DNA from: a virus
Length of the DNA stretch: 21,924 nt
Reading direction: 5' to 3' (one strand)
IMG/VR virus record: IMGVR_UViG_3300032053_016284
Span: 1-21,924 of that record
The notes below the pieces were generated by a model. That model was not told the origin of the DNA, searched no databases, and saw only the letters and a list, made by a program, of their open reading frames with translations. A program made the position numbers and the translations under genes. Shown piece by piece: positions 2,641-20,629 of the stretch; position 1 is the stretch's first letter, and the number at the start of each line of letters is the position of its first letter.

Positions 2641-3055
2641 TTTCTTTTCCCTTTGTGATTAAATCAATCGCTAATAAATATTCATTAGGCTCAACTCTGA
2701 AAGGAACCATAAAAGTCTGCATAAGTTGAGTCTTATTAAAAATATGATGCAAAGCCCACGAGCCATTTACATTTACACTATGTATAATGGCCATTTTTGG
2801 AGCTTTATCTAATGGACAATTTTCCATGAATGCCTGAGCCAAACCTTGAGTATTTAACCAAGTTTTCTTATCTTCATCATATGAATCATGATCAAGGTGT
2901 AAAATATCAAAGTAATGAATACCTTCAACATGAGACTTGAGATGAATTATAGCCTCATCTAACGTTTGAGCATATACAAGTTCTGTGCCAATTGCAACTC
3001 TATTTTTAAAAATATCAAATCTAATCTTCTCATCATCTATGAATAGTATTTTCAT
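2627..3055 (-). CDS. Cyclic-phosphate-processing receiver-like (cREC) protein
   Basis: This 142-aa single-domain protein begins MKILFIDDEKIRFDIFKN, a receiver-like beta strand with an Asp pair. It continues to the strand FDILHLDHDSYDED, where the LDHD motif stands in the place of the receiver phospho-acceptor, and then AIIHSVNVNGSWAL. The combination DDE, LDHD and HSxN is what I recall for the cyclic-phosphate-processing receiver family, whose members are thought from comparative genomics to act on cyclic phosphate ends in RNA repair. No phosphorelay kinase is nearby, so it is unlikely to be a signalling receiver. Its ATG overlaps the stop of the polymerase C-part gene (ATGA), and it overlaps the sigma gene downstream. 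The family call is from motif memory, not a search. Confidence 0.6.
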   Translation of the reverse strand: MKILFIDDEKIRFDIFKNRVAIGTELVYAQTLDEAIIHLKSHVEGIHYFDILHLDHDSYDEDKKTWLNTQGLAQAFMENCPLDKAPKMAIIHSVNVNGSWALHHIFNKTQLMQTFMVPFRVEPNEYLLAIDLITKGKENVKI

Positions 3056-4128
3056 ATTATTTTTTCCTTAACCTCTTCGACACCCATTATAGAAAATTTC
3101 CAATTGGAATCATTTTGTATTTTTAAATTAAATAAATAACATGTTTTTTCTTTAATATATTTAGACAGGATAGGTTCCGTATCTGCTTTACGTGGCCAGC
3201 AAACTATTTTTTGCTGATATCCGTCAAAATCAAGAATTAATTCCAAAGCACTTTTATTCATACTATATTTTTCACTAAAATAAGAAAAATTTCTAACCGC
3301 TATAACATAACCATAAGAGACACATTCAACAGATTCTTCTAGAGTCTCATAATTATCTAAAGTTTGATGTAAAGTTTTACCATCAAACAAAGGTATTCTG
3401 CCCCTAAGATAGCGCTGATTATCTCGTATTACGAAAGGTTGATTAATTCCTTGAGTATTTAAAATAGCGTCTGTTAAACTAATAATTGAAACTGGAAGAA
3501 CTTGTTTATTTAATAAAAATTCTTTATATGGATTTAAATCTTTCAACTCTTCTGGAAGTTCTTCTTGTTTTTTGCCTTCTTTTAAAGACTTCCAGACAAG
3601 ATAATCTGTAACTTTATCTTTTAAAGACATTTTTTCTTCAAATAAAACATTCATAGCCCCAGATTTCAAAAGATTAATAATCACTTTCTTATTGGTTTTT
3701 CTACCATCAATTCGATTGACAAAATCTTCTAATGAAGCAAAAGGAGCTTTGGCAGATATATCCCTCAACGCTTCTGGGCCTACTCCATTTATTAAATTTA
3801 TAGGAGGAATAATGCGACCATTATGCAGTTCGTATTTTTCTTTAGATGTATTGATATTCGGCTCTTCTATTAAATGGCATATCTCTGACCAGAATTTTTC
3901 TGTCACTTCATCTGGTGTAGAGTTAGAGAGGACACTGGTCCACCATTCTAATGGATAATGATGCTTTAGATATGCCGTAGCATAAGATATTAAACCATAT
4001 CCTACGCTATGCGAACAATTATGTGCCGCTGCGCCATTTTCTAATAAAAAATTATGCTCGGACGGCATTTCTATATCATAGACTTTAGATTTATACTTTT
4101 TTATCGATTTTATTTTTAACCGTTTCAT
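3052..4128 (-). CDS. dnaE: DNA polymerase III alpha, C-terminal part, with N-terminal split-intein C-half
   Basis: The product starts with a ~37-aa C-intein (KVYDIEMPSEHNFLLENG...AAAHN) and continues directly into C-extein CSHSVGYGLISYATAYLKHHYP. This matches the DnaE segment usually written FNKSHSAAY...YLKAHYP, here with Lys replaced by the +1 Cys. The remaining ~300 residues carry helix-hairpin-helix-like sequence (INLINGVGPEALRDI), the tail of the polymerase core and an OB-fold-like C-terminus. After trans-splicing it would be joined to the product encoded at 4343-6130. I chose the ATG at 4128 because the C-intein then has the length of known DnaE C-inteins. An upstream ATG at 4167 would add 13 residues and overlaps the homing-endonuclease remnant. 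The C-extein is about 321 aa. The stop overlaps the next gene by ATGA. Confidence 0.88.
   Translation of the reverse strand: MKRLKIKSIKKYKSKVYDIEMPSEHNFLLENGAAAHNCSHSVGYGLISYATAYLKHHYPLEWWTSVLSNSTPDEVTEKFWSEICHLIEEPNINTSKEKYELHNGRIIPPINLINGVGPEALRDISAKAPFASLEDFVNRIDGRKTNKKVIINLLKSGAMNVLFEEKMSLKDKVTDYLVWKSLKEGKKQEELPEELKDLNPYKEFLLNKQVLPVSIISLTDAILNTQGINQPFVIRDNQRYLRGRIPLFDGKTLHQTLDNYETLEESVECVSYGYVIAVRNFSYFSEKYSMNKSALELILDFDGYQQKIVCWPRKADTEPILSKYIKEKTCYLFNLKIQNDSNWKFSIMGVEEVKEKII
4018..4128 (-). other. Split intein, C-terminal half (Int-C)
   Basis: This segment is 37 residues from Met to the terminal His-Asn. Block F is KVYDIEMPSEHNFLL and block G is NGAAAHN, followed by Cys as +1 nucleophile at 4017-4015. 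It closely resembles the C-halves of naturally split DnaE inteins in length and block spacing. It should associate with the N-half encoded at 4346-4639. Residue +2 of the C-extein is Ser rather than the Phe of cyanobacterial DnaE. Confidence 0.9.
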
Positions 4129-4356
4129 AAGAAACACTTTTTTCCCCAAAAATTTTTTCAATTTCATCTTGCCACATTAAATATTCATCATCCCAAAATA
4201 CATAATAATTATATTTTAATTTTAAAGCATTTAAAATGTAATCTTTTTTTATTATTTTCCAAAATACATTTTTTTACTTTTAATATATTGTTTGAATATA
4301 TTTGTATACGTATTTAAACCGCATTCACACAATATAGAGACTTTATTCTTCTTCAT
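4091..4356 (-). pseudogene. Decayed homing endonuclease (Vsr-like?) between split-intein halves
   Basis: Two open stretches in different frames fill the gap between the intein halves. The first starts at an ATG (4356) overlapping the N-intein end and encodes 34 residues with a Cys-x-Cys motif (SILCECGLNTYTNIF), ending in TAA at 4254-4252. The second is open from about 4273 to a stop at 4091. It reads KKDYILNALKLKYNYYVFW and then DDEYLMWQDEIEKIFGE, which resembles the C-terminal 'long x(V) x FW-acidic' segment of Vsr-like endonucleases. No catalytic middle is present. I read this as the head and tail of an endonuclease gene that lost its core by deletion. The arrangement mirrors 'fractured genes', in which a free-standing Vsr-like endonuclease lies between split-intein halves. 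The family assignment is tentative. Confidence 0.5.
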
Positions 4357-6130
4357 AGGTATCGATATAAGAATAAATTTCGCATATTGTTTTCAAATCA
4401 ATCCATTCATTATTTACAAAAAATTTGTGATCCGGTGTCGCTTTTATTATTGAACCATCTTCTAATTCAATTTCATATATTTCTTTATTTCCAATAAATT
4501 TACCAAATTTTGGTTTTTCGTACTTAATTTTATTTTCTTTATCAAGATAAGCCACTTCATAATTATCTACGTCGTTACAAATATTTTTTATTGAAAAGCT
4601 GCCACTTTTTGTTTTTATTAATTGAGTTTCTTCAATACAATTAAATGAATATCTAGCAAAAGCCAAAAGAGTATCATAAAGCTTATCAGCTTGTTCTTGC
4701 GTCCAGCCTCTTTCTATAAGCATTGGTAGGCGTTTCTTGATTTCTTCGAAAGCGGCTGGATTTTTATCAGAAATAGCCCCGCGAATTGTATCTGACTCTT
4801 CTTCTGAGTATCCCAACAAATCTTGAATGATTCGAGTAACTGATTCTTGATATACAATAACACCGTAAGTGTCTTTTAAAGCATCTTTTAAATCATCATG
4901 GATATATTCAACATCCAAATTACCATGCATTCTTTCGATATAAGCATCGGCAGCAACAATTTGTTTACCTCCAGATGTGGTAATAATCGCATCTAAAGCA
5001 CCAGGCCTGTTAAGCGCTACACCTGCAAAGATATCTTTTTTTGTTTTTGGTTTAAGTTTTTTAGCGAAACTAGCGCCACCGGAAGTTTCAAACTGAAACA
5101 ATGTATTACATCGTCCGTCTAGATATTCTATATAAACTTCAGGATCTTCGGGAAGGTTCCAAGGATCTAAGATAATACCTCTAGTTTTTATTTTATCAAG
5201 AGTATCACCTATAAAATTCAAACATGTCAAACCAAGATTATCAAATTTAATTAGACCTAATTTTTGAATTACTTTTTTATCATAAGCTATTACATTGAAT
5301 CCATCAACCTTCATTACCGGAACAATTTCATACAAAGGCACATCAGATATGACAATGCCGGCTGCATGTGTACCAATAGACCTAGGAATAGAAAGGATAC
5401 TTTTGGCTGTTTCAAGTACGCTTGGGTACTGTCCAACCCATTCTCTAAATCCAGGATTTGTTTCTAGCAATCCTGGCTTGTATTCCTCATCCTTAGTACA
5501 CCCTTCTAACCACTCTAAATCGGTATCACCAACAGGGCAATTGCCCAAGGTCTTTCGTATATTATTAAATTGTTTAGTAATAATGTCCAAATGAATTCGC
5601 AAACTAATAGATTCGTCTTTTTTATCTTGATCTTTTAATTGTTTAATTTTAAATTCATTTGGCTGTACAATATTAATGCGCCATGCATCCATTAATGAAT
5701 TTTTTAATTTCTGCATGCTAAACGTAGCAACGAAAGCTATTTTGTTACCATATTTATCAAATAATATCTTATTTAACTTATCTCTTTTGTTTTCACCTTT
5801 TTTACCACCAGCGAAGTCAACGTCAATATCAGGTACGCTCTTCTTTAGACGCGATTTACTAATCATGCGCTTCAAGGGTAGATTGTATTTGATGGGGTTT
5901 GTATCAGTAATACCAAATAAATAAGAAACCAAAGAACCACCGGAACTACCCCGACAAGGTCCCTTTGGTATATTTTCTTGTTTGGCCGTATCGCAAATTT
6001 CCTTAAGAGTGAGAAAATACGGCATATAATCGGCGGACGAATTATCCGTGATAATATCTAATTCTTCAATCAGCTTCTCCCTATAATTTTCAGGCAAACG
6101 TTTTAAGATTTCTTCCAATTTCTCTAGCAT
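4343..6130 (-). CDS. dnaE: DNA polymerase III alpha, polymerase core N-part with C-terminal N-intein
   Basis: This 595-aa product has about 497 residues of polymerase and a 98-residue N-intein. It begins inside DnaE, after the PHP domain. Recognisable are PYFLTLKEICDTAKQ, GPCRGSSGGSLVSYLFGITDTNP, the catalytic pair in VPDIDVDF, SIGTHAAGIVIS and the third catalytic Asp in LIKFDNLGLTCLN, followed by the fingers-like GVALNRPGALD. The extein ends FARYSFN and the intein begins CIEETQ at residue 498. It would form the replicative polymerase with the separately encoded PHP protein and, after splicing, with the C-part encoded downstream. The predicted spliced core is 818 aa, and adding the 341-aa PHP gene gives 1159 aa, the usual length of an undivided DnaE. 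The ATG at 6130 lies 3 nt after a small ORF. Confidence 0.92.
   Translation of the reverse strand: MLEKLEEILKRLPENYREKLIEELDIITDNSSADYMPYFLTLKEICDTAKQENIPKGPCRGSSGGSLVSYLFGITDTNPIKYNLPLKRMISKSRLKKSVPDIDVDFAGGKKGENKRDKLNKILFDKYGNKIAFVATFSMQKLKNSLMDAWRINIVQPNEFKIKQLKDQDKKDESISLRIHLDIITKQFNNIRKTLGNCPVGDTDLEWLEGCTKDEEYKPGLLETNPGFREWVGQYPSVLETAKSILSIPRSIGTHAAGIVISDVPLYEIVPVMKVDGFNVIAYDKKVIQKLGLIKFDNLGLTCLNFIGDTLDKIKTRGIILDPWNLPEDPEVYIEYLDGRCNTLFQFETSGGASFAKKLKPKTKKDIFAGVALNRPGALDAIITTSGGKQIVAADAYIERMHGNLDVEYIHDDLKDALKDTYGVIVYQESVTRIIQDLLGYSEEESDTIRGAISDKNPAAFEEIKKRLPMLIERGWTQEQADKLYDTLLAFARYSFNCIEETQLIKTKSGSFSIKNICNDVDNYEVAYLDKENKIKYEKPKFGKFIGNKEIYEIELEDGSIIKATPDHKFFVNNEWIDLKTICEIYSYIDTYEEE
4346..4639 (-). 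other. Split intein, N-terminal half (Int-N)
   Basis: This segment is 98 residues from Cys (codon 4639-4637) to the stop codon. Block A is CIEETQLIKTKSG and block B is IIKATPDHKFFV with the conserved T-x-x-H. It contains the ELEDGSIIKATPDHKF pattern typical of DnaE-type split N-inteins, which are about 100 residues long. The frame ends YIDTYEEE. No endonuclease domain is fused. Confidence 0.92.
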
Positions 6131-6133
6131 TAT

Positions 6134-6316
6134 TTATTTCTCATTTAATATATTTGCTAAAAAATGAAAAGCATTGGGTTCATCAAAAGGACAGCTGCAT
6201 TCAAGCATTTTGTTAAGAAATAACGATAATTCATCTTTTGTTTTGGGAAAATTTTCATTATTAAAATCATGACACCATATGCAATGGCAATAGTATTCTG
6301 TTAAATCTTCATTCAT
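6134..6316 (-). CDS. Small Cys-rich protein inside the split polymerase locus (unknown)
   Basis: This 60-aa ORF overlaps the end of the PHP gene by 8 nt and ends 3 nt before the polymerase core ATG, so it sits exactly at the fission point of DnaE. It has a Cys/His cluster (YYCHCIWCHDF) and a second one (LECSCPFDEP), a possible small zinc site. I do not recognise a family. It could be a subunit that bridges the two polymerase pieces or an unrelated insertion. The tight spacing supports it being translated. Confidence 0.6.
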   Translation of the reverse strand: MNEDLTEYYCHCIWCHDFNNENFPKTKDELSLFLNKMLECSCPFDEPNAFHFLANILNEK

Positions 6317-7334
6317 GACAATCGCATATCTCCTTCATCCTGGACTCTAGCACATTTTTAGAGAAAAGCTGTAAGGATTCCTCTTGGTTCTTGGTTTTAA
6401 AAGCAAGATGAATTGTTTTTTCTACCTTTGAATAATCTATCTTATCAGTAAAGTGTTTTGCATTTTCTACCATGGAATTAAACATTTTTTCATCAAAACC
6501 TGGCAAATACGTCAAATGGCTATACATTTCGTCTGGTTCTAATAAATGATGACTACGGAGAAAATGCCAACCTTTTTCTCCGTTTTGGAGAATGGCCGAT
6601 TGTATTGGATGTTTATCTTTGGTCGTGAAATGTGCATCTGATGTTATGACTGGCTTTAATCCGCGTTTTATAACGGCATGATCCCATAGCCATTGATGAT
6701 ATCCTTTTTGAAGATCTCCATCCGGACACCACGGCTTGCATTCATTCGGAACAAATGTGCCTTTTTTATGATCGTAGTCATGGGTTACTTGATGAGGTAC
6801 AAATTCAGCAAAGACATTATCTTTGCCAAAAATATCTATTAACCAATCAAGATGTCTTTCGGCTAAATCCATTCTATCTTCTAATAGACATTTGCCAACG
6901 ACTCCAGAGACACATCCTGTCCCAACAAAAATACCTTTATTACGCTCTCTTAATAGGTCCCACGTAACATGGTTTTTCTTTTTGCCCCATTTGGTTGTAA
7001 TAACATCCCAAGATTTATAAAAAAGATATAGAAGATTTTTCTTACCTTCATCATTATAAGCAAGAGCTGTTAAATGACCATTGGCTTTAGGAAAATCAGC
7101 ACTTAAATCAACGTAAAATTCACATCCAGCTATATATTGAGCATTGTATTTTTCACAAGCTTGCTCTAGATGATACAAAGCGCTCATTTGTCCGTGATCA
7201 CTCAAGGCTATATATTTAGTATTTTGTTCCTCTACACAATATTTTACCATTTCTTCAGGAGAAGAAACGCTGTCAATGAGACTGAAGGTTGAATGCATAT
7301 GAAATTGGGCATGCATATATTTAAGATTATTCAT
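6309..7334 (-). CDS. dnaE: PHP domain of DNA polymerase III alpha as a separate gene
   Basis: This 341-aa protein matches the N-terminal third of DnaE. It begins with the metal-binding strand YMHAQFHMHSTFSLIDSV (the HxH motif and the following SLxD), then YIALSDHGQMSALYHLEQA, YIAGCEFYVDL and late VITSDAHFTTKDKHPIQSA, the last metal-binding strand and the following linker. The metal ligands of an active PHP domain (HxH, DHG, GCE, H, SDAH) look intact, so it may keep 3'-5' exonuclease activity. The gene stops where the polymerase core begins in the intact enzyme, and the core is encoded just downstream. Its ATG overlaps the stop of the HNH endonuclease gene (ATGA). No intein sequence lies at this break, so this part would join the holoenzyme non-covalently. 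Confidence 0.9.
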   Translation of the reverse strand: MNNLKYMHAQFHMHSTFSLIDSVSSPEEMVKYCVEEQNTKYIALSDHGQMSALYHLEQACEKYNAQYIAGCEFYVDLSADFPKANGHLTALAYNDEGKKNLLYLFYKSWDVITTKWGKKKNHVTWDLLRERNKGIFVGTGCVSGVVGKCLLEDRMDLAERHLDWLIDIFGKDNVFAEFVPHQVTHDYDHKKGTFVPNECKPWCPDGDLQKGYHQWLWDHAVIKRGLKPVITSDAHFTTKDKHPIQSAILQNGEKGWHFLRSHHLLEPDEMYSHLTYLPGFDEKMFNSMVENAKHFTDKIDYSKVEKTIHLAFKTKNQEESLQLFSKNVLESRMKEICDCHE

Positions 7335-7804
7335 TTCGCAATCTCATTCAAATTGGCAAAATCGCCGAATAATTCAATAGCTTTTTTATTATAAGCTTTG
7401 GCTGCATCTATTTCATTATTAAATAAACCTAAGAAAATAGATTTATTAGCATATCCTATTGATGATTTCCATTTTTTGCCTTGTTTATGCCAACATACTC
7501 CTTTATAAAAAGATGTTCCTCTTGTTTTTCTTGTATTACTTACTTGTTGACTTTGATTTGCTTTTCTTAAATTAGATTTTTGATTATTTAAACCATTATG
7601 ATCAATATGATCTATACCTTTGAATCCCATAATTTCAATATGCATTTTATTCATTTTTTGTTTGCCATTTTTTCTTGGCAATGCCCTCACTGCATAAAAA
7701 GTATGATTGTCTTTTAGTGCACACCATTTATATTGATTTAAAGACTCATAATCTTCATCATCAACCTGTGCAAAAAGACCTTGCGTTAAAGAAATTAACT
7801 TCAT
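7331..7804 (-). CDS. Free-standing HNH endonuclease with AP2 DNA-binding domain
   Basis: This ~157-aa protein belongs to the phage HNH-AP2 homing endonuclease family. The N-terminal domain starts MKLISLTQGLFAQVDDEDY and includes NQYKWCALK. The HNH core is KMHIEIMGFKGIDHIDHNG followed by LNNQKSNLRKANQSQQ. The C-terminal AP2 domain is TSFYKGVCWHKQGKKWKSSI ending in FGDFANLNE. I chose the ATG at 7804, eight codons inside the longest frame, because the family starts at this MK-I-L/P motif. It sits between a small gene and the PHP gene and overlaps the PHP start. Such genes normally cut an intein- or intron-free allele of a neighbouring gene and spread by repair. A degraded relative lies at 8080-8157. 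Confidence 0.9.
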   Translation of the reverse strand: MKLISLTQGLFAQVDDEDYESLNQYKWCALKDNHTFYAVRALPRKNGKQKMNKMHIEIMGFKGIDHIDHNGLNNQKSNLRKANQSQQVSNTRKTRGTSFYKGVCWHKQGKKWKSSIGYANKSIFLGLFNNEIDAAKAYNKKAIELFGDFANLNEIAK

Positions 7805-7814
7805 ATTGATAATT

Positions 7815-8045
7815 CTACCAACTACCATAATCTGTGATATCAGCTTCTAGACCAGACATGCTATCTGAAACTTTGATTGAAGTACCAATTCCGGTGTGAG
7901 TAATATGATAAGTAATGCTGCCACCTATAGCCCCAGCGGACTTATCTTTACTTTTCATTTTAATTTGTTGTAAAAACAATTGTAAATTCTCTTGTTCTGA
8001 TTCATTTAAATAAACGTTGATTTCTGTAATTTTTCTTTCCATCAT
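7815..8045 (-). CDS. Small acidic protein of unknown function
   Basis: The 76-aa frame is taken from the ATG at 8045. A longer frame exists from a TTG at 8072, but it has no better start signal. The protein has an amphipathic helix rich in Glu and Gln (NESEQENLQLFLQQIKMK), then a Gly/Ser/Thr-rich beta-like stretch (GGSITYHITHTGIGTSIKVS) and ends DITDYGSW. No motif is recognised. Its stop lies between the two candidate starts of the HNH/AP2 gene, 10 nt before the one I chose. It may be a small DNA- or protein-binding accessory. Confidence 0.55.
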   Translation of the reverse strand: MMERKITEINVYLNESEQENLQLFLQQIKMKSKDKSAGAIGGSITYHITHTGIGTSIKVSDSMSGLEADITDYGSW

Positions 8046-9491: not shown

Positions 9492-12089
9492 TTAAGCGCC
9501 GCAGCTTCCACCTTTGCTAATCTCACATACATCCGCCTGCTCAACAAATATTTCGCCCGTATATTTAATAGCAATAGAATAATTCACAGGTGATAACGGC
9601 TGTCCGCCACGAGCACCATCAGGGTAGACTGTCATCCCGCGAAGTTTTGGCAAATATTTAATTAACATTTGCCCAAGTTCCATCATAGTTTTTTCATTAT
9701 TAAATTCAGTACCCCAAGCTGGCAAATTGATAGTAGAACTAATACCATGATCAACATATTCTTGAACCCAAGCCTGAAATGCTACGCGTTTTTCAACATC
9801 TTTAGCTAAATCATATGCATCTTGAATATTCTCAGGATTTACACCCGATTCAATCAATCTTTTGGCAGCCGGATCAATAACATATTGATAATGCCAAACA
9901 TTGCCCTTTAAATATCGCCTTTGGTACGATACACAAAAAATTGGCTCAATACCAGTAGAAGTCTCCGAAATGATACCTATCGTGCCCGTGGGTGCAATGG
10001 CTCTTGTTTTGATTGGTTTTGACAAATCCCATTTTTCTGCATAAACATGAGCAATTTCCGTACTTGTGGCGTATATTTCAAGATATTTTTCTAAATCATC
10101 GTCTTTTTCATATTTCTTGCCATTTTTTAGTAACCATTCATGTATACCCATCAGTCCTAAACCAAGGCGTCTATTCTTTGTTCTGATTTGATCTACCTTA
10201 GCATAGGGCACATCACTATAGACCGTCCCAGCTAATAAAAAGGCAGTTGCTAACTCGGTTACGCGCTTCATTTCTTCTAGTGAAGATATTTGCGCCAAAT
10301 TAATAGAACCAAGATTACAAATATCAGAATCATCGCGACTGGTTACCTCTGTGCATTGTCCAGTGGCTATTCCATTGAAACATCCGAGGTGTCTTTTAGA
10401 TTCATTAAAACAATAAACAAAATCTAACGTTTCAGATTCCGTTACATCAACAATAACTGTAAATCGAGCAGCATCTCTGTTGGGATTTTTATCAAATAAT
10501 AATCTTTCACATTTCATTCCTAACGACAATAATTGTTGTAATTGTATTGCCCCAATGCAAATTCTTTTTGATTCTTTACAATAATAATTTTTATAATTAC
10601 CCTTATGATCCGGCAAAAGCCTATCTCCCGCAGGCATTCCGGCTACAATCTTACTATTCGCTCCAATTGTGCTTAGCATTTTTTGAACATTTTCAAGAAA
10701 ACCAAAATCAACAGAGGATAATTGTAATCCGCCCTCTTTCAGTTCGCACCCATCTCCATCGAAAAGTCCGGCTAACCATTCTAATTTAGATTCTAAATTA
10801 TATTCTAATGGTACAAACATTTTCGAAAAAGGTTGAAAATTGAAAGATAATCGTTTTCTATTGTATTTATCAGATTGACTAATAGAAGCAACGCTTTCTT
10901 TTAATCTATTTAGGCAGACATATTTAGGTTCATACAAATATAAAAATTTATAATCATCCATTCCCTCAGCAGAAATAAAACCTTGACAATAAGCATTATT
11001 TAACTCTGGACCGTCTTTTAAAACAGGAAATCCGTATTTAATCAACTTCATTCCGGGAACAAGGTTCTGCGCTTCTACTCTTAATTCTCCACCTTGATAA
11101 TTGGTTGAAATAACGAATTTATGATCTGGTGTACAATTTAATTTTCTTCCGTCTGATAGAGTTACTATTACTGTCTCTTGATTTTCTCCGGTTATTTTAG
11201 GTTCAACCTCAGACCACTCAAAGCCATTCCATATATCGACCTTTTTGCCAACAAGATTTGAAATGCGTTGATAACCTTCTTTGGTTAATAGTTCAGTGTC
11301 ACCCGAGACACAAGCGTTTCTAAGAGTTTCACCTTCATTAATACCAGTATCAACGCTAAAACCCGGTTCGGCTGTTTTTACCATTTGCTCTAACGTGGAC
11401 CAGTAAACAGACGTAGCCTGGGCATGAAGCTTATGTTTCGGATTGTGGAAAGCTTTAAAAAAGTCATCATCCAATAACACAGAAACGTTGGTGCCGTCTA
11501 AGTCGGCTGGAAAATTGAAATCCTTCTCTTTTAGCGCTCTAACTTCGGGAGACCAATTTTTAATTCTAATAAATTTGTGAATATCAGGATGATTCCACTT
11601 TAAGCCAGCCCAAATGGCACTACGGCGGGAACCACCTTGCATGATACCACGTCCAAGCTCATTGATCATTTTCATCAAGCTCAATGGACCAGTGCTGGTT
11701 CCGCCAGTCTTCCGAATAGCCTTACCTTCACCCCTAACATCAGAATAATCTATTCCAATGCCTGCGCCAGTCATCAGCGCCATAGTGGATTTTTGAGTTA
11801 GTTCTGCCCATCCTTCACGACTGTCCTCTGCTCTTAAAAGCAAACAATTTTGAGTCTGATGAAATAGATTGCCAGCGGCATAAAGATATCTGCCACCCGG
11901 AACAAACTTTTTTTCTTTGATAATTTGCTCTATTTCTTTTGTAAGCTCTGACGGTGCATTAACCGCGCGCATCACTTGTCTAGCAACTCGTTTAGATATG
12001 TCTTCCCAGGTTTCCTTTGTTCCGTCTTTTTTAGTGTGAGAATACTTTTGTTCCATAATTGTTTTGGCAAAAACACTTTCGTTGGACAT
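9492..12089 (-). CDS. nrdJ: Class II (B12-dependent) ribonucleoside reductase with intein
   Basis: This 865-aa precursor has an intein at residues 260-578, leaving 546 aa of enzyme. It reduces ribonucleotides to deoxyribonucleotides using adenosylcobalamin. Conserved blocks are FVPGGRYLYAAGN, QNCLLLRA (first redox Cys), MTGAGIGIDYSDVRG, GGTSTGPLSLMKM, MQGGSRRSA, the split active-site motif ending LRNA joined to CTEVTSR, SDICNLGSINLA (second redox Cys), RTKNRRLGLGLMG, PTGTIGIISETSTGIEP and the C-terminal Cys pair CEISKGGSC. The dimanganese/diiron partner of class I is not needed and not present here. A Shine-Dalgarno AAAGG precedes the ATG at 12089. The upstream neighbour is the RuvC-like gene, and the two tRNAs lie downstream. 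Splicing is required to restore the active-site loop. Confidence 0.93.
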   Translation of the reverse strand: MSNESVFAKTIMEQKYSHTKKDGTKETWEDISKRVARQVMRAVNAPSELTKEIEQIIKEKKFVPGGRYLYAAGNLFHQTQNCLLLRAEDSREGWAELTQKSTMALMTGAGIGIDYSDVRGEGKAIRKTGGTSTGPLSLMKMINELGRGIMQGGSRRSAIWAGLKWNHPDIHKFIRIKNWSPEVRALKEKDFNFPADLDGTNVSVLLDDDFFKAFHNPKHKLHAQATSVYWSTLEQMVKTAEPGFSVDTGINEGETLRNACVSGDTELLTKEGYQRISNLVGKKVDIWNGFEWSEVEPKITGENQETVIVTLSDGRKLNCTPDHKFVISTNYQGGELRVEAQNLVPGMKLIKYGFPVLKDGPELNNAYCQGFISAEGMDDYKFLYLYEPKYVCLNRLKESVASISQSDKYNRKRLSFNFQPFSKMFVPLEYNLESKLEWLAGLFDGDGCELKEGGLQLSSVDFGFLENVQKMLSTIGANSKIVAGMPAGDRLLPDHKGNYKNYYCKESKRICIGAIQLQQLLSLGMKCERLLFDKNPNRDAARFTVIVDVTESETLDFVYCFNESKRHLGCFNGIATGQCTEVTSRDDSDICNLGSINLAQISSLEEMKRVTELATAFLLAGTVYSDVPYAKVDQIRTKNRRLGLGLMGIHEWLLKNGKKYEKDDDLEKYLEIYATSTEIAHVYAEKWDLSKPIKTRAIAPTGTIGIISETSTGIEPIFCVSYQRRYLKGNVWHYQYVIDPAAKRLIESGVNPENIQDAYDLAKDVEKRVAFQAWVQEYVDHGISSTINLPAWGTEFNNEKTMMELGQMLIKYLPKLRGMTVYPDGARGGQPLSPVNYSIAIKYTGEIFVEQADVCEISKGGSCGA
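10356..11312 (-). other. NrdJ intein with LAGLIDADG endonuclease, ending Gly-Gln
   Basis: This 319-residue intein starts with Cys (CVSGDTELLTKEG), has block B LNCTPDHKFVIS, and a DOD-type endonuclease with motifs CQGFISAEG and WLAGLFDGDGC. It ends GCFNGIATGQ before the +1 Cys. The N-extein ends LRNA and the C-extein starts CTE. Normal inteins end His-Asn. Here the last two residues are Gly-Gln, a variation known from some viral ribonucleotide reductase inteins. Both endonuclease motifs keep an acidic residue, so cutting activity is possible. Confidence 0.92.
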
Positions 12090-14115: not shown

Positions 14116-14712
14116 TCAAGTCTTTTTGAATGTATGTCCTCCGGCAGAATTTCTTTTACCATTTATATTTCTACTAATACTTTCTATTGCTATGTTCATT
14201 TTTTCTGATGCATCTTTTAAACTATTAAATTTTTCATTAGATTCTATATATTGAACAGAAATCATTTTATGTCTGTTGGCTTCTTTTGCTTTTATTTTCG
14301 ACTCTTCTGAATGAATTTTTCCAAAACTAGGACATTTCTCACCCGTTTTGCCATACATGGGATTATTTTTACCCTTAACATCAGCATGATTGATTGAAAT
14401 TTTCTTTTTAGATTCTTCCGAATGAAGACCGTAAGTACCACCATTTTTTTGGTTATAACCAAATTCAATTGATTGAAACTTTTCTATATAAAAACATTCT
14501 AAAATATCTAATTCTTCTTTATTGTTTGCTTTATCAAGAATTAATTTATCAAAATTATCCCATCCATATTTTTTAATAGAATTATGAATTTTATTACTAA
14601 TTTTATTGTTATTATATTCACGCATACGTCTTTTAAAATCAATAGTCTGTCCTATATAAACTTTATTATTAATTTTATTAATTAAAATATAAATAGTACC
14701 ATAAATTTTCAT
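14116..14712 (-). CDS. Free-standing GIY-YIG homing endonuclease (Seg-like)
   Basis: This 198-aa protein has the GIY-YIG domain at its start: YGTIYILINKINNKVYIGQT, the catalytic Arg in DFKRRMREY, then LDILECFYIEKFQSIEFGYN with the catalytic Glu, and NQKNGG. The C-terminal part has NUMOD3-type repeats (LHSEESKKKIS, KGKNNPMYGKTGEKCPSFGK, IHSEESKIKAKE) and a terminal NUMOD1/IENR1-like segment (FNSLKDASEKMNIAIESISR) that bind DNA. The ATG overlaps the stop of the 62-aa gene (ATGA). It sits at the 3' end of that gene and seems to have displaced the native tail. Confidence 0.93.
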   Translation of the reverse strand: MKIYGTIYILINKINNKVYIGQTIDFKRRMREYNNNKISNKIHNSIKKYGWDNFDKLILDKANNKEELDILECFYIEKFQSIEFGYNQKNGGTYGLHSEESKKKISINHADVKGKNNPMYGKTGEKCPSFGKIHSEESKIKAKEANRHKMISVQYIESNEKFNSLKDASEKMNIAIESISRNINGKRNSAGGHTFKKT

Positions 14713-17872: not shown

Positions 17873-20629
17873 TTAAGATTCTTCTAACATAAAACTATTA
17901 TCGGGCGTATATCCATCCATTTCTGATTGCAGTCTAACGCTTTTACCTGATTGCTGACGTTCATATTCATCATCTCTTTGAAATACGCAAATTCCACCTA
18001 AAGTACCAAGTAAACTAGAAATACTAATAGCAGATCTAACAGCTTCCATAACTGCCGGTACGCTATCTAGCAATTTCAATTCGAAAGGATCACCTAATTG
18101 CTTAGTAAGAGCATTATATACTTCATATTCGTTTCTAACCAAATGATCTAATATTGAACGTCTTTCAGAATCACTTAAACCTGAATTTTCCAATAAAATC
18201 AACAAGGGTTGAGTAAAAGCTGGCCCCAAGACCTTTTTTACTACTAAACTATCAAATTCCATGGCTTTTAGGCTAAGATTAAGTAAAATGCGACCACCAC
18301 CAGGCAAAACTCCAGTCCTGGGAGCACCACGTAAGGCGCAGATGGCATCCTCTGCTCTATCCTTGGTTTCCCTAACCTGACTATCAGATACGTCTCTAAT
18401 GGTCAACTTAGCTATACCACCAGTCAACCTTCCAATTCGTTCATCTAGAATTGATTTTTCAAATTTAGATGTAGTTGCACTATCTCTTCTAATTTGCAAT
18501 TGGGCTACTCTTTGTAGAATAGTGGCCTCATTCCCTGCACCATGTACAACTGAAACAAATCGGGCCATTTCAAATGACGTTCCTGTTTGACCCAAATCTG
18601 AGGGAACACCTTGTGATAACGGATAATTAACTGAATTAAAGATTTTACCACCTGTAAAAGCAGCCATATCTCTTAAGAAATCATATCGTGAATTAGCTAA
18701 AGCATCTACCGGAGTTAAGCATGGTATAATCTTAAAAGTAGAGCTACTCTGAATTTTAGCCAATTGAGCCACGACGGAATTATTAAACTGATGAGCCATT
18801 ATTACAAAATTTGTTGAAGTTTTATTATTTTGAATATATTCTTGTTCGAGTAGTTGAAATAATCTACCCAAACCAGCCATATCCATAACATTTCCATCTA
18901 CTAAAATGAATGATGGATTTTCTAAGATTATTTTAGAATTAGATTGATCAATGAATTCATTGGAAAATCGACCACAACTTTCCTCAAAACCTTTGTTTAC
19001 AACATATCCACTGACTTTAGATACACCAAAACCATGAGATCCGCCTTCTTCTGCCAAAGTAATATGACCCCTATCACCAACCAAGTTAAAGGCTTCAAGA
19101 ACAGTTTGTGATAAAACATCATCACCGTTAGTTGAAACTTTAGCGACCATCAAAAGTAATTCATTATAATTATCTTTGTTGACTTTAATTGCTTTGCTTT
19201 CAATGTAAGGAACACAAACAGTTTCAAAAAAAGCAGTTATTTCACGCACCGCTTGCTGTGGACTATATTGTTTGTTGTCCTTTAAAAATTGACTCATGTT
19301 TTTCATAATAGCTTGAGCTAATACTGTTGCTGTGGTGGTATTATGAGTAGCGATGAATCCATCAGTAATATACAAAGAATTTTCATTACTGACCTTGATA
19401 CATTGCATTTCTGTAAACTGCCCAGTTTTTTCTACGCTTATAATCTTATTGCCATATTTATTTCCTTTTAATTCATAAATTCTATGAATTGGATTTTCCG
19501 AATATGAGCCAGAATCTCGATCTCTATGATGAATCTTACTGTAAATAGATTTGCCCAAACTTTTCATCAAATCAGAGATGTCGTTTTTTAAAAAATCACT
19601 AACAGTGCTAAACTCAAAAAGACTTCTTTTATTAAAAAAACCATCAGTGTTCATTAATCCTTGTAATAATTGTTCACGATTATCTTTACTAGAAAATAAA
19701 TATCGCTTAGGAATAAATTTAGTTTTGCTTTTTGTATTTTTTAAGCCTAATTCATCCAATAAATCGCGGATAGATTTACCTTCGTTATTCACACCTGTGA
19801 TTTTGATTCGAAAACTATTCTTATTATCAATATAAGATATATTAGTCTGAATTCCTTTGGGAAATTTTAATTTATTAATTATATGTTGTTTCGATTTACC
19901 TAACCAAATTTCAATACTTCCACTCTCTCCAAGAGAGCCATCGCCTAGCAATACACCTAACAAATAAGGATCTATAGAAAATTCATTTTCTGCAAATTCC
20001 GGATATGATTTTTCTATGTAATATTTAAATTTTTTCTGATTATTATTTGTAATTTCTACAAAGTCATTTATAATTTCTTCAGTCTTAATGACTTTTTTAG
20101 AACCGTAATTAGTAGTGACACTCCATAAGTGATCTGCGCAACATTCTACTATACTATTATCTTCAAATGTTATTTTAATTATTTCTTTTTGTCCCTTTGG
20201 AAAAACCCCAAGCACTCTTTGTACGGTTCCGTTCGTACCACAAATTTTCATTCCCACTTGAACGTCTTTCATTGAAATAAATCCAGAAGGAGTTAAGATT
20301 TTACTCCATAATGGTTGCGGACCATCGCCCGCGCTTTCAACAGTTTTCACAGCTGCATCACGAAAAGCCTCTAGAATAACTTGCTGCACTGAATTTCTAA
20401 ATCCTAAAGAACGAGCAACCGTAACACCGTCTTTAGTTTGATATGGAGCCAATCCAGGATCTGCTCTTTCAATTAAAATTGTTTTACCATGTGGTCCTAA
20501 GGTAGAACCTACCATTTCAGCGATCAAATCAACTGTTTCAATAATAATCTTTTCTAATTCAAAACTGGATGGAACTATGATTTTAGATGCTGATTTTATT
20601 TTCTTTAATTCAGTGTCCATAAAACTCAT
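17873..20629 (-). CDS. groEL: GroEL-type chaperonin interrupted by a class 3-type intein
   Basis: This 918-aa precursor has a 327-residue intein at residues 104-430, leaving 591 aa of chaperonin. It would fold phage or host proteins using ATP. Conserved blocks are MVGSTLGPHGKTILIERADP, QTKDGVTVARSLG (ATP/Mg site), AGDG joined after splicing to TTTATVLAQAI, TKDRAEDAICALRG and VLPGGGRILLNLS. The catalytic Asp of the GDG motif is kept. The C-terminus lacks the Gly-Gly-Met tail of bacterial GroEL. No groES gene is in the window. AGAGG precedes the ATG at 20629. It is the first gene of the leftward block, directly downstream of the non-coding control region. Confidence 0.93.
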   Translation of the reverse strand: MSFMDTELKKIKSASKIIVPSSFELEKIIIETVDLIAEMVGSTLGPHGKTILIERADPGLAPYQTKDGVTVARSLGFRNSVQQVILEAFRDAAVKTVESAGDGPQPLWSKILTPSGFISMKDVQVGMKICGTNGTVQRVLGVFPKGQKEIIKITFEDNSIVECCADHLWSVTTNYGSKKVIKTEEIINDFVEITNNNQKKFKYYIEKSYPEFAENEFSIDPYLLGVLLGDGSLGESGSIEIWLGKSKQHIINKLKFPKGIQTNISYIDNKNSFRIKITGVNNEGKSIRDLLDELGLKNTKSKTKFIPKRYLFSSKDNREQLLQGLMNTDGFFNKRSLFEFSTVSDFLKNDISDLMKSLGKSIYSKIHHRDRDSGSYSENPIHRIYELKGNKYGNKIISVEKTGQFTEMQCIKVSNENSLYITDGFIATHNTTTATVLAQAIMKNMSQFLKDNKQYSPQQAVREITAFFETVCVPYIESKAIKVNKDNYNELLLMVAKVSTNGDDVLSQTVLEAFNLVGDRGHITLAEEGGSHGFGVSKVSGYVVNKGFEESCGRFSNEFIDQSNSKIILENPSFILVDGNVMDMAGLGRLFQLLEQEYIQNNKTSTNFVIMAHQFNNSVVAQLAKIQSSSTFKIIPCLTPVDALANSRYDFLRDMAAFTGGKIFNSVNYPLSQGVPSDLGQTGTSFEMARFVSVVHGAGNEATILQRVAQLQIRRDSATTSKFEKSILDERIGRLTGGIAKLTIRDVSDSQVRETKDRAEDAICALRGAPRTGVLPGGGRILLNLSLKAMEFDSLVVKKVLGPAFTQPLLILLENSGLSDSERRSILDHLVRNEYEVYNALTKQLGDPFELKLLDSVPAVMEAVRSAISISSLLGTLGGICVFQRDDEYERQQSGKSVRLQSEMDGYTPDNSFMLEES
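19340..20320 (-). other. GroEL class 3-type intein with LAGLIDADG endonuclease
   Basis: This 327-residue intein begins PQPLWSKILTPSGFISMKDV, without the N-terminal Cys/Ser/Ala nucleophile of class 1. Block B is VECCADHLWSVTT (Trp169 of the precursor), block F has EMQCIKVS (Cys410), and block G is GFIATHN (Thr428, His, Asn430), followed by +1 Thr. Trp, Cys and Thr at these places are the W-C-T set of class 3 inteins, in which the block F Cys makes the first attack. The endonuclease motifs are YLLGVLLGDGSL and LLQGLMNTDGFF. It lies between GDG and TTT of the ATP-binding motif. Confidence 0.9.

What the first reader, a model, noticed from the sequence alone, without database searches (positions are those of the whole stretch)
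3052..6130. Fractured DnaE with a split intein at a new position
The N-part ends FARYSFN followed by a 98-aa N-intein, and the C-part starts with a 37-aa C-intein followed by CSHSVGYG. Cyanobacterial DnaE is split three residues earlier, before CFNKSHS. Here the split follows FN, and the +1 Cys replaces the conserved Lys of FNKSHS. It therefore looks like an independent insertion at the neighbouring position. The predicted spliced product is 818 aa.
Basis: partly seen in the sequence, partly recalled or inferred. Interest (0 to 1): 0.85.

Follow-up and report, generated by a model that had tools for sequence, protein, structure and literature searches.

The report
Phage DNA polymerase with split intein
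A bacteriophage makes its replication polymerase in two pieces that are predicted to join themselves through a split self-splicing insert, and the scar of the mobile nuclease gene that once sat between the pieces is still there; relatives with the nuclease intact or fully gone show steps by which such split genes can arise.

Summary
dnaE-N (4343-6130, -) is 497 aa of polymerase ending FARYSFN plus a 98-aa N-intein. dnaE-C (3052-4128, -) is a 37-aa C-intein plus 321 aa starting CSHSVGYG. The junction lies three residues downstream of the cyanobacterial site (FAEY|CFNKSHS). The predicted product is 818 aa; the PHP domain is a separate gene.

Pattern scans found the same FN|C split in three more phage contigs: L078 and L079 with the endonuclease intact, L076 with it deleted. 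L013 has a related element four residues further on.

The four FN|C inteins form one clade (100/99), but the window's polymerase is only 33-34% identical to the others, and the other carriers sit beside intein-free sisters. The best reading is a mobile split intein whose endonuclease has decayed in the window and been lost in L076. Both halves are under purifying selection (dN/dS 0.05-0.07, L076 against L079).

The closest solved inteins are cyanobacterial DnaE split inteins; shared ancestry is unresolved. The arrangement is a phage dnaE version of the known 'fractured gene' type. Splicing was not tested experimentally.

The parts
4640..6130 (-). dnaE-N extein, 497 aa: NTPase/palm and finger regions of Pol III alpha, ending FARYSFN; carries the PDIDVDF and IKFDNLGL motifs that hold the three catalytic aspartates in DnaE
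   Evidence: aspartates assigned by motif from knowledge of E. coli DnaE
4343..4639 (-). N-intein, 98 aa, Cys1 and block B ATPDHKFF, net charge -8
4255..4356 (-). 5' relic of the endonuclease gene: MKKNKVSILCECGLNTYTNIFKQYIKSKKMYFGK then two stops; overlaps the end of dnaE-N
   Evidence: weak match (scores 34-42), but at the N-terminus of all three intact endonucleases
4091..4249 (-). 3' relic of the endonuclease gene: KKDYILNALKLKYNYYVFWDDEYLMWQDEIEKIFGEKSVSYETVKNKIDKKV then stop; overlaps the start of dnaE-C
   Evidence: scores 106 (L013), 109 (L078), 74 (L079) against shuffle maxima of at most 59
4018..4128 (-). C-intein, 37 aa from the inner ATG (50 aa if the ATG at 4167 is used): MKRLKIK...GAAAHN, net charge +4
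3052..4017 (-). dnaE-C extein, 321 aa, starts CSHSVGYG; rest of fingers and helix-hairpin-helix
6309..7334 (-). PHP domain of DnaE as a separate gene, 341 aa
   Evidence: the same PHP/Pol separation is seen in Rhodococcus phages Grayson and Trina

Best explanation
This is the replicative DNA polymerase (DnaE, Pol III alpha) gene of a phage, broken in two by a mobile split intein at FN|CSH in the finger region. The two products are translated separately. The acidic N-intein and basic C-intein find each other, fold into one Hint domain, excise by the class 1 pathway (Cys1, TxxH, His-Asn, +1 Cys) and join the exteins into an 818-aa polymerase that keeps the +1 Cys where relatives mostly have Lys. 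It presumably works with the separately encoded PHP protein. The element originally carried, between its halves, a free-standing endonuclease gene that overlapped both and probably drove homing into intein-free dnaE genes at this exact site. In the window the core of that gene has been deleted and only its two ends remain, so the split intein is stranded: needed to make the polymerase, no longer self-mobile. Shown: the anatomy, the catalytic motifs, the 3' relic (the 5' relic is weaker), same-site relatives with and without the endonuclease, incongruent intein and polymerase trees, purifying selection in relatives. Inferred: splicing, endonuclease and homing activity, polymerase function.
For: Complete set of splicing motifs and opposite charges; nearest solved inteins are split DnaE inteins by sequence and fold; same-site split in L076, L078, L079; intact endonuclease between the halves in L078, L079 and L013, relic in the window, scar in L076; intein clade 100/99 against polymerases that do not group and intein-free sister lineages; dN/dS 0.068 and 0.051 for the two intein halves; no second polymerase in the 175.8-kb L078 contig; endonuclease core linked to phage homing endonucleases (hhalign E 9.5e-7).
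Against: No splicing, cleavage or polymerase assay exists. The window record is a fragment, so another dnaE cannot be excluded there. The 5' relic match is weak alone. dN/dS is from relatives, not from the window, and the C-intein overlaps the endonuclease end, which constrains it too. Fold search of the endonuclease was uninformative. The patchy distribution could also come from repeated loss.
Confidence: 0.82

Rival explanations
1. The intein is of the same lineage as the cyanobacterial DnaE split inteins and reached the FN|C site by a local shift or by transfer, so it is not an independent invasion.
For: Cyanobacterial DnaE inteins are the nearest solved inteins (6.6e-7 against 0.009 for the next kind) and the first 14 fold matches; both are naturally split with the same charge pattern; a joint clade is not rejected (AU p 0.49); L013 shows that related elements sit at neighbouring positions.
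Against: The two groups are separately supported clades with long branches, identity is only about 28-32%, and the relation is unresolved.
Confidence: 0.45
2. The FN|C inteins and the cyanobacterial DnaE inteins descend from separate invasions by unrelated inteins.
For: Different site, separate clades 100/99 and 97/98; phage dnaE is invaded at several neighbouring positions by dissimilar inteins (FNK|SH in Grayson, Trina and MT835601).
Against: The cyanobacterial inteins are closer to the window's intein than are the other phage DnaE inteins or gp41-1, NrdJ-1 and IMPDH-1.
Confidence: 0.35
3. The two polymerase pieces assemble without covalent joining and the intein halves are inert, as with phage polymerase genes that are split without inteins.
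For: T4-like phages have polymerase genes split into 43A and 43B without an intein (PMC2988022); Rossellomorea phage phiT1 has dnaE in two ORFs without an intein; the PHP domain here is already separate.
Against: All splicing residues are kept, and both halves are under purifying selection in relatives.
Confidence: 0.06
4. The fractured dnaE is a pseudogene or an assembly artefact, and replication uses another polymerase.
For: The record is a fragment, so a second dnaE cannot be excluded.
Against: Long intact ORFs on both sides, catalytic motifs kept, the same arrangement in three other contigs, and no second polymerase in the 175.8-kb contig of L078.
Confidence: 0.05

Closest known systems
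Fractured genes with split inteins and free-standing endonucleases (Dassa et al. 2009, Nucleic Acids Res 37:2560; content from my own knowledge, the paper is not held)
   Same: A conserved phage replication enzyme broken by a split intein, with a free-standing endonuclease gene between the halves in L078, L079 and L013
   Different: The host gene is dnaE at FN|C; in the window the endonuclease is only a relic and in L076 it is gone. Whether dnaE was among the gene types of 2009 could not be checked
Cyanobacterial split DnaE inteins (Npu, Ssp)
   Same: Same host gene, naturally split near the same place in the intein, acidic N-half and basic C-half, class 1 motifs, +1 Cys; nearest solved relatives
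   Different: Site three residues upstream (FAEY|CFNKSHS); halves far apart in the genome and no endonuclease; separate clade; native +2 is Phe, here Ser
Unsplit inteins in phage dnaE at FNK|SH (Rhodococcus phages Grayson and Trina, MT835601)
   Same: Same loop of the same gene
   Different: One residue downstream, +1 Ser, one continuous ORF, dissimilar inteins
Phage homing endonucleases of the EDxHD/Vsr-like kind
   Same: The core of the intact endonucleases (IEMHG..WH, ND.IKKELA) matches phage proteins L095/L096 (hhalign E 9.5e-7); L095 falls in PHROG homing-endonuclease families
   Different: No direct Pfam or PDB match; assignment to EDxHD rests on motif spacing and is not settled

Membership tests
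Split class 1 intein | Cys or Ser at position 1, block B TxxH, block F, terminal His-Asn, Cys/Ser/Thr at +1, on two separate ORFs | tested here: met
   Sequence and alignments; stops in all frames between the halves
Split class 1 intein | Protein trans-splicing activity | not testable with these tools
   Needs co-expression; indirect support from dN/dS in relatives
Cyanobacterial-type DnaE split intein (same allele) | Insertion at FAEY|CFNKSHS | tested here: not met
   The window site is FN|CSH, three residues downstream
Cyanobacterial-type DnaE split intein (same allele) | Groups with cyanobacterial DnaE inteins in a tree | tested here: inconclusive
   Separate clades; joint clade AU p 0.49
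Fractured gene (Dassa type) | Conserved enzyme gene broken in two by a split intein, halves adjacent | tested here: met
Fractured gene (Dassa type) | Free-standing endonuclease gene between the halves | tested here: inconclusive
   Only the two ends remain in the window; intact in same-site relatives L078 and L079
EDxHD/Vsr-like homing endonuclease (gap ORF of relatives) | Catalytic core homologous to known EDxHD/Vsr proteins | tested here: inconclusive
   Profile match to phage homing-endonuclease-like proteins; no Pfam or PDB match and an uninformative fold search
EDxHD/Vsr-like homing endonuclease (gap ORF of relatives) | Cleaves the intein-free dnaE allele | not testable with these tools
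   Needs a cleavage assay
DnaE (Pol III alpha) | PHP, palm with catalytic aspartates, fingers, HhH | tested here: met
   Present across three ORFs: PHP 6309-7334, palm and fingers 4343-6130, HhH 3052-4128; aspartates by motif

The most novel reading that the evidence does not exclude
The cyanobacterial split DnaE inteins, the textbook and biotechnology standard, descend from a phage element of this family: a mobile split intein that carried its endonuclease between the halves, invaded dnaE, lost the endonuclease as in the window and L076, and was then pulled apart in the host genome.
Probability: 0.25. Interest if true: 0.85.

Novelty: new variant of a known kind. Interest (0 to 1): 0.62.

Why it matters
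It gives a series at one insertion site: split intein with intact endonuclease (L078, L079), with its relic (window), and with it lost (L076, a close relative of L079). This fits a route from a mobile 'fractured' gene to a fixed, endonuclease-free split gene of the cyanobacterial kind. The same split intein sits in distantly related polymerases beside intein-free sisters, which points to a split element that moves. It makes the origin of the cyanobacterial split DnaE intein testable. Practically, it offers DnaE-like split inteins whose native +2 residue is Ser (Ala in L013), whereas Npu DnaE prefers a large hydrophobic +2 residue (PMC8899391).

Tried and rejected
Frameshift or assembly artefact: rejected (stops in all frames; recurrence in three contigs). 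DNA-level search for near relatives of the window in phage records: no match. Endonuclease of L013 against phage records: no match. Structure of the endonuclease: low confidence (pLDDT 59), Foldseek matches not meaningful. Profile searches of the PDB for a Vsr or EDxHD match: none. The one genome-contig hit to the site pattern (L080) was a chance match outside dnaE. A joint clade of phage and cyanobacterial inteins: neither shown nor rejected. dS was saturated or near it for the exteins, so only the intein halves gave usable dN/dS. Several phage hits that seemed to reach into the C-intein (Gordonia, Bacteroides, Mycobacterium phages, phage G) turned out intein-free. Literature: Dassa 2009 is not held; I found no phage dnaE split intein in the titles, abstracts and passages of held papers that I looked at, which is not a full prior-art search.

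Full report
Observation. On the minus strand the window encodes a PHP-domain protein (6309-7334), a 60-aa ORF (6134-6316), dnaE-N (4343-6130) and dnaE-C (3052-4167 or, more likely, 3052-4128). dnaE-N holds the polymerase NTPase/palm and finger domains; its last 98 residues, CIEETQ...TYEEE, are an N-intein. dnaE-C opens with a C-intein ending GAAAHN and continues CSHSVGYG. The window is a 21.9-kb virus record.

Splicing apparatus. Cys1, ATPDHKFF (block B), VYDIEMPSEHNF (block F), His-Asn and +1 Cys are all present. The N-half is acidic (-8) and the C-half basic (+4), as in the cyanobacterial DnaE pair. The solved structures nearest to the N-half by sequence are cyanobacterial DnaE inteins (6.6e-7 to 3.9e-5), followed by DnaB inteins (0.009 or worse). 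The AlphaFold model of the N-half (pLDDT 78) matches Npu DnaE first (2e-5), and the first 14 hits are all DnaE inteins; TM-scores are moderate, about 0.4, as the half lacks its partner.

Position. In 14 genomes with the cyanobacterial intein, the C-half is followed by CFNKSH in all, and the N-half is preceded by FAEY in the ten where my script could read it. The window's FN|CSH is three residues later. The Lys that the +1 Cys replaces is the commonest residue in phage DnaEs but not invariant (30 of 49), so Cys there is plausible. Other phages carry unsplit inteins at FNK|SH (Grayson, Trina, MT835601), and L013 is split at FNxSHS|C. This loop is a hot spot of intein insertion.

The gap. The 175 nt between the halves contain, overlapping dnaE-N, a start MKKNKVSILCECG... 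that runs into two stops and, overlapping dnaE-C...YYVFWDDEYLMWQDEIEKIFG...KNKIDKKV followed by a stop. In L013, L078 and L079 the same place holds a 355-358-aa ORF that overlaps both halves. The 3' relic matches its C-terminus (score 106 in L013, 109 in L078, 74 in L079; shuffles at most 59). The 5' relic matches its N-terminus only weakly, but at the right end in all three. About 270 codons, including the putative catalytic core, are missing.

Same-site relatives. Pattern scans for Asn-Cys-Ser-His with the conserved downstream spacing found L076, L078 and L079. L079 has the endonuclease. L076, whose dnaE parts are 83-85% identical to those of L079 at DNA level on both sides of the gap, has only a short spacer that keeps an endonuclease-like start and about the last 20 codons of the endonuclease frame. 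The endonuclease was therefore probably lost at least twice, in the L076 and the window lineages. The 175.8-kb contig of L078 has no second polymerase.

Mobility. The four FN|C inteins are one clade (100/99). The polymerases are not: the window's DnaE is 33-34% identical to the others and lies across a 100/100 branch from them; L078 is sister to intein-free L009 (99/97), and L076/L079 to intein-free L011 (93/89). Between the window and the others the inteins (47-50%) are more alike than the polymerases. L013 is 84% identical to intein-free DnaEs in which the codons that flank its 1398-nt insert are adjacent. All four FN|C carriers read YSFN|CSH, whereas the intein-free sisters of L076 and L078 read YGF[NS], which would fit co-conversion of flanking sequence. 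I infer homing; no cleavage was tested, and repeated loss from an ancient insertion is not formally excluded.

Function. Between L076 and L079 dN/dS is 0.068 for the N-intein and 0.051 for the C-intein; the latter overlaps the endonuclease end, which constrains it too. Splicing thus appears to be under selection in these relatives, as expected if the polymerase depends on it.

Relation to known systems. The anatomy is that of 'fractured genes' (Dassa et al. 2009, known to me but not held). The endonucleases link by profile comparison to phage homing endonucleases (E 9.5e-7; PHROG names) and resemble the EDxHD/Vsr kind described for phages (PMC3943268; PMC12350094); that assignment is not proven. 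A review describes the cyanobacterial split DnaE intein as a former parasite retained because the polymerase depends on it (PMC3403396); the window looks like the same outcome in a phage.

Side finding. In L012 an unsplit 430-aa intein at FNQ|SHA stays open across an out-of-frame, Vsr-like endonuclease ORF. With the endonuclease's amino acids held fixed, the intein frame stays open in 4 of 10,000 draws or fewer. This looks like an overlapping endonuclease gene inside an unbroken intein, a possible forerunner of fractured genes. It rests on one contig.

Verdict. Observation confirmed, interpretation partly supported. This is a new variant of a known kind. Its value lies in the series of endonuclease states at one site and in the open question of kinship with the cyanobacterial inteins.

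Noticed in passing
L012:4828-6117 (IMGVR_UViG_3300050138_000621): Unsplit 430-aa intein in phage DnaE at FNQ|SHA whose frame stays open across an out-of-frame Vsr-like endonuclease ORF (core of 290 aa); expected 8-10 stops by chance, observed none. Possible overlapping-gene forerunner of fractured genes.
   Followed up: partly
window 19340-20320 (-): 327-aa intein inside a phage GroEL/Cpn60 gene (AGDG|PQPLWSK...ATHN|TTTATV); the first residue reads Pro rather than Cys or Ser, with a weak LAGLIDADG match.
   Followed up: no
window 10356-11312 (-): 319-aa LAGLIDADG-bearing intein in a class II-like ribonucleotide reductase gene, ending GIATGQ|C, with Gln as its last residue instead of Asn.
   Followed up: no
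window 6134-7334 (-): PHP domain of DnaE is a separate gene with a 60-aa orphan ORF before the polymerase part; Rhodococcus phages Grayson and Trina also separate PHP and Pol.
   Followed up: partly
window 7331-7828 (-) and 14116-14712 (-): Two free-standing homing-endonuclease-like genes, HNH/AP2 and GIY-YIG; with three inteins the window is rich in mobile elements.
   Followed up: no
L018, ORF from nt 5059: Another phage dnaE intein C-half at a different site (VIVHN|CAFVIANRP), upstream of an uninterrupted FNKSHS.
   Followed up: no
L060:3056-6338 (Rossellomorea phage phiT1): dnaE broken into two ORFs (573 and 469 aa) with a 49-aa ORF between and no intein.
   Followed up: no
FN|C flanks of the window, L076, L078, L079 against L004, L009, L011, L026: All FN|C carriers read YSFN|CSH while intein-free sisters of L076 and L078 read YGF[NS]; possible co-conversion of flanking sequence.
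   Followed up: partly
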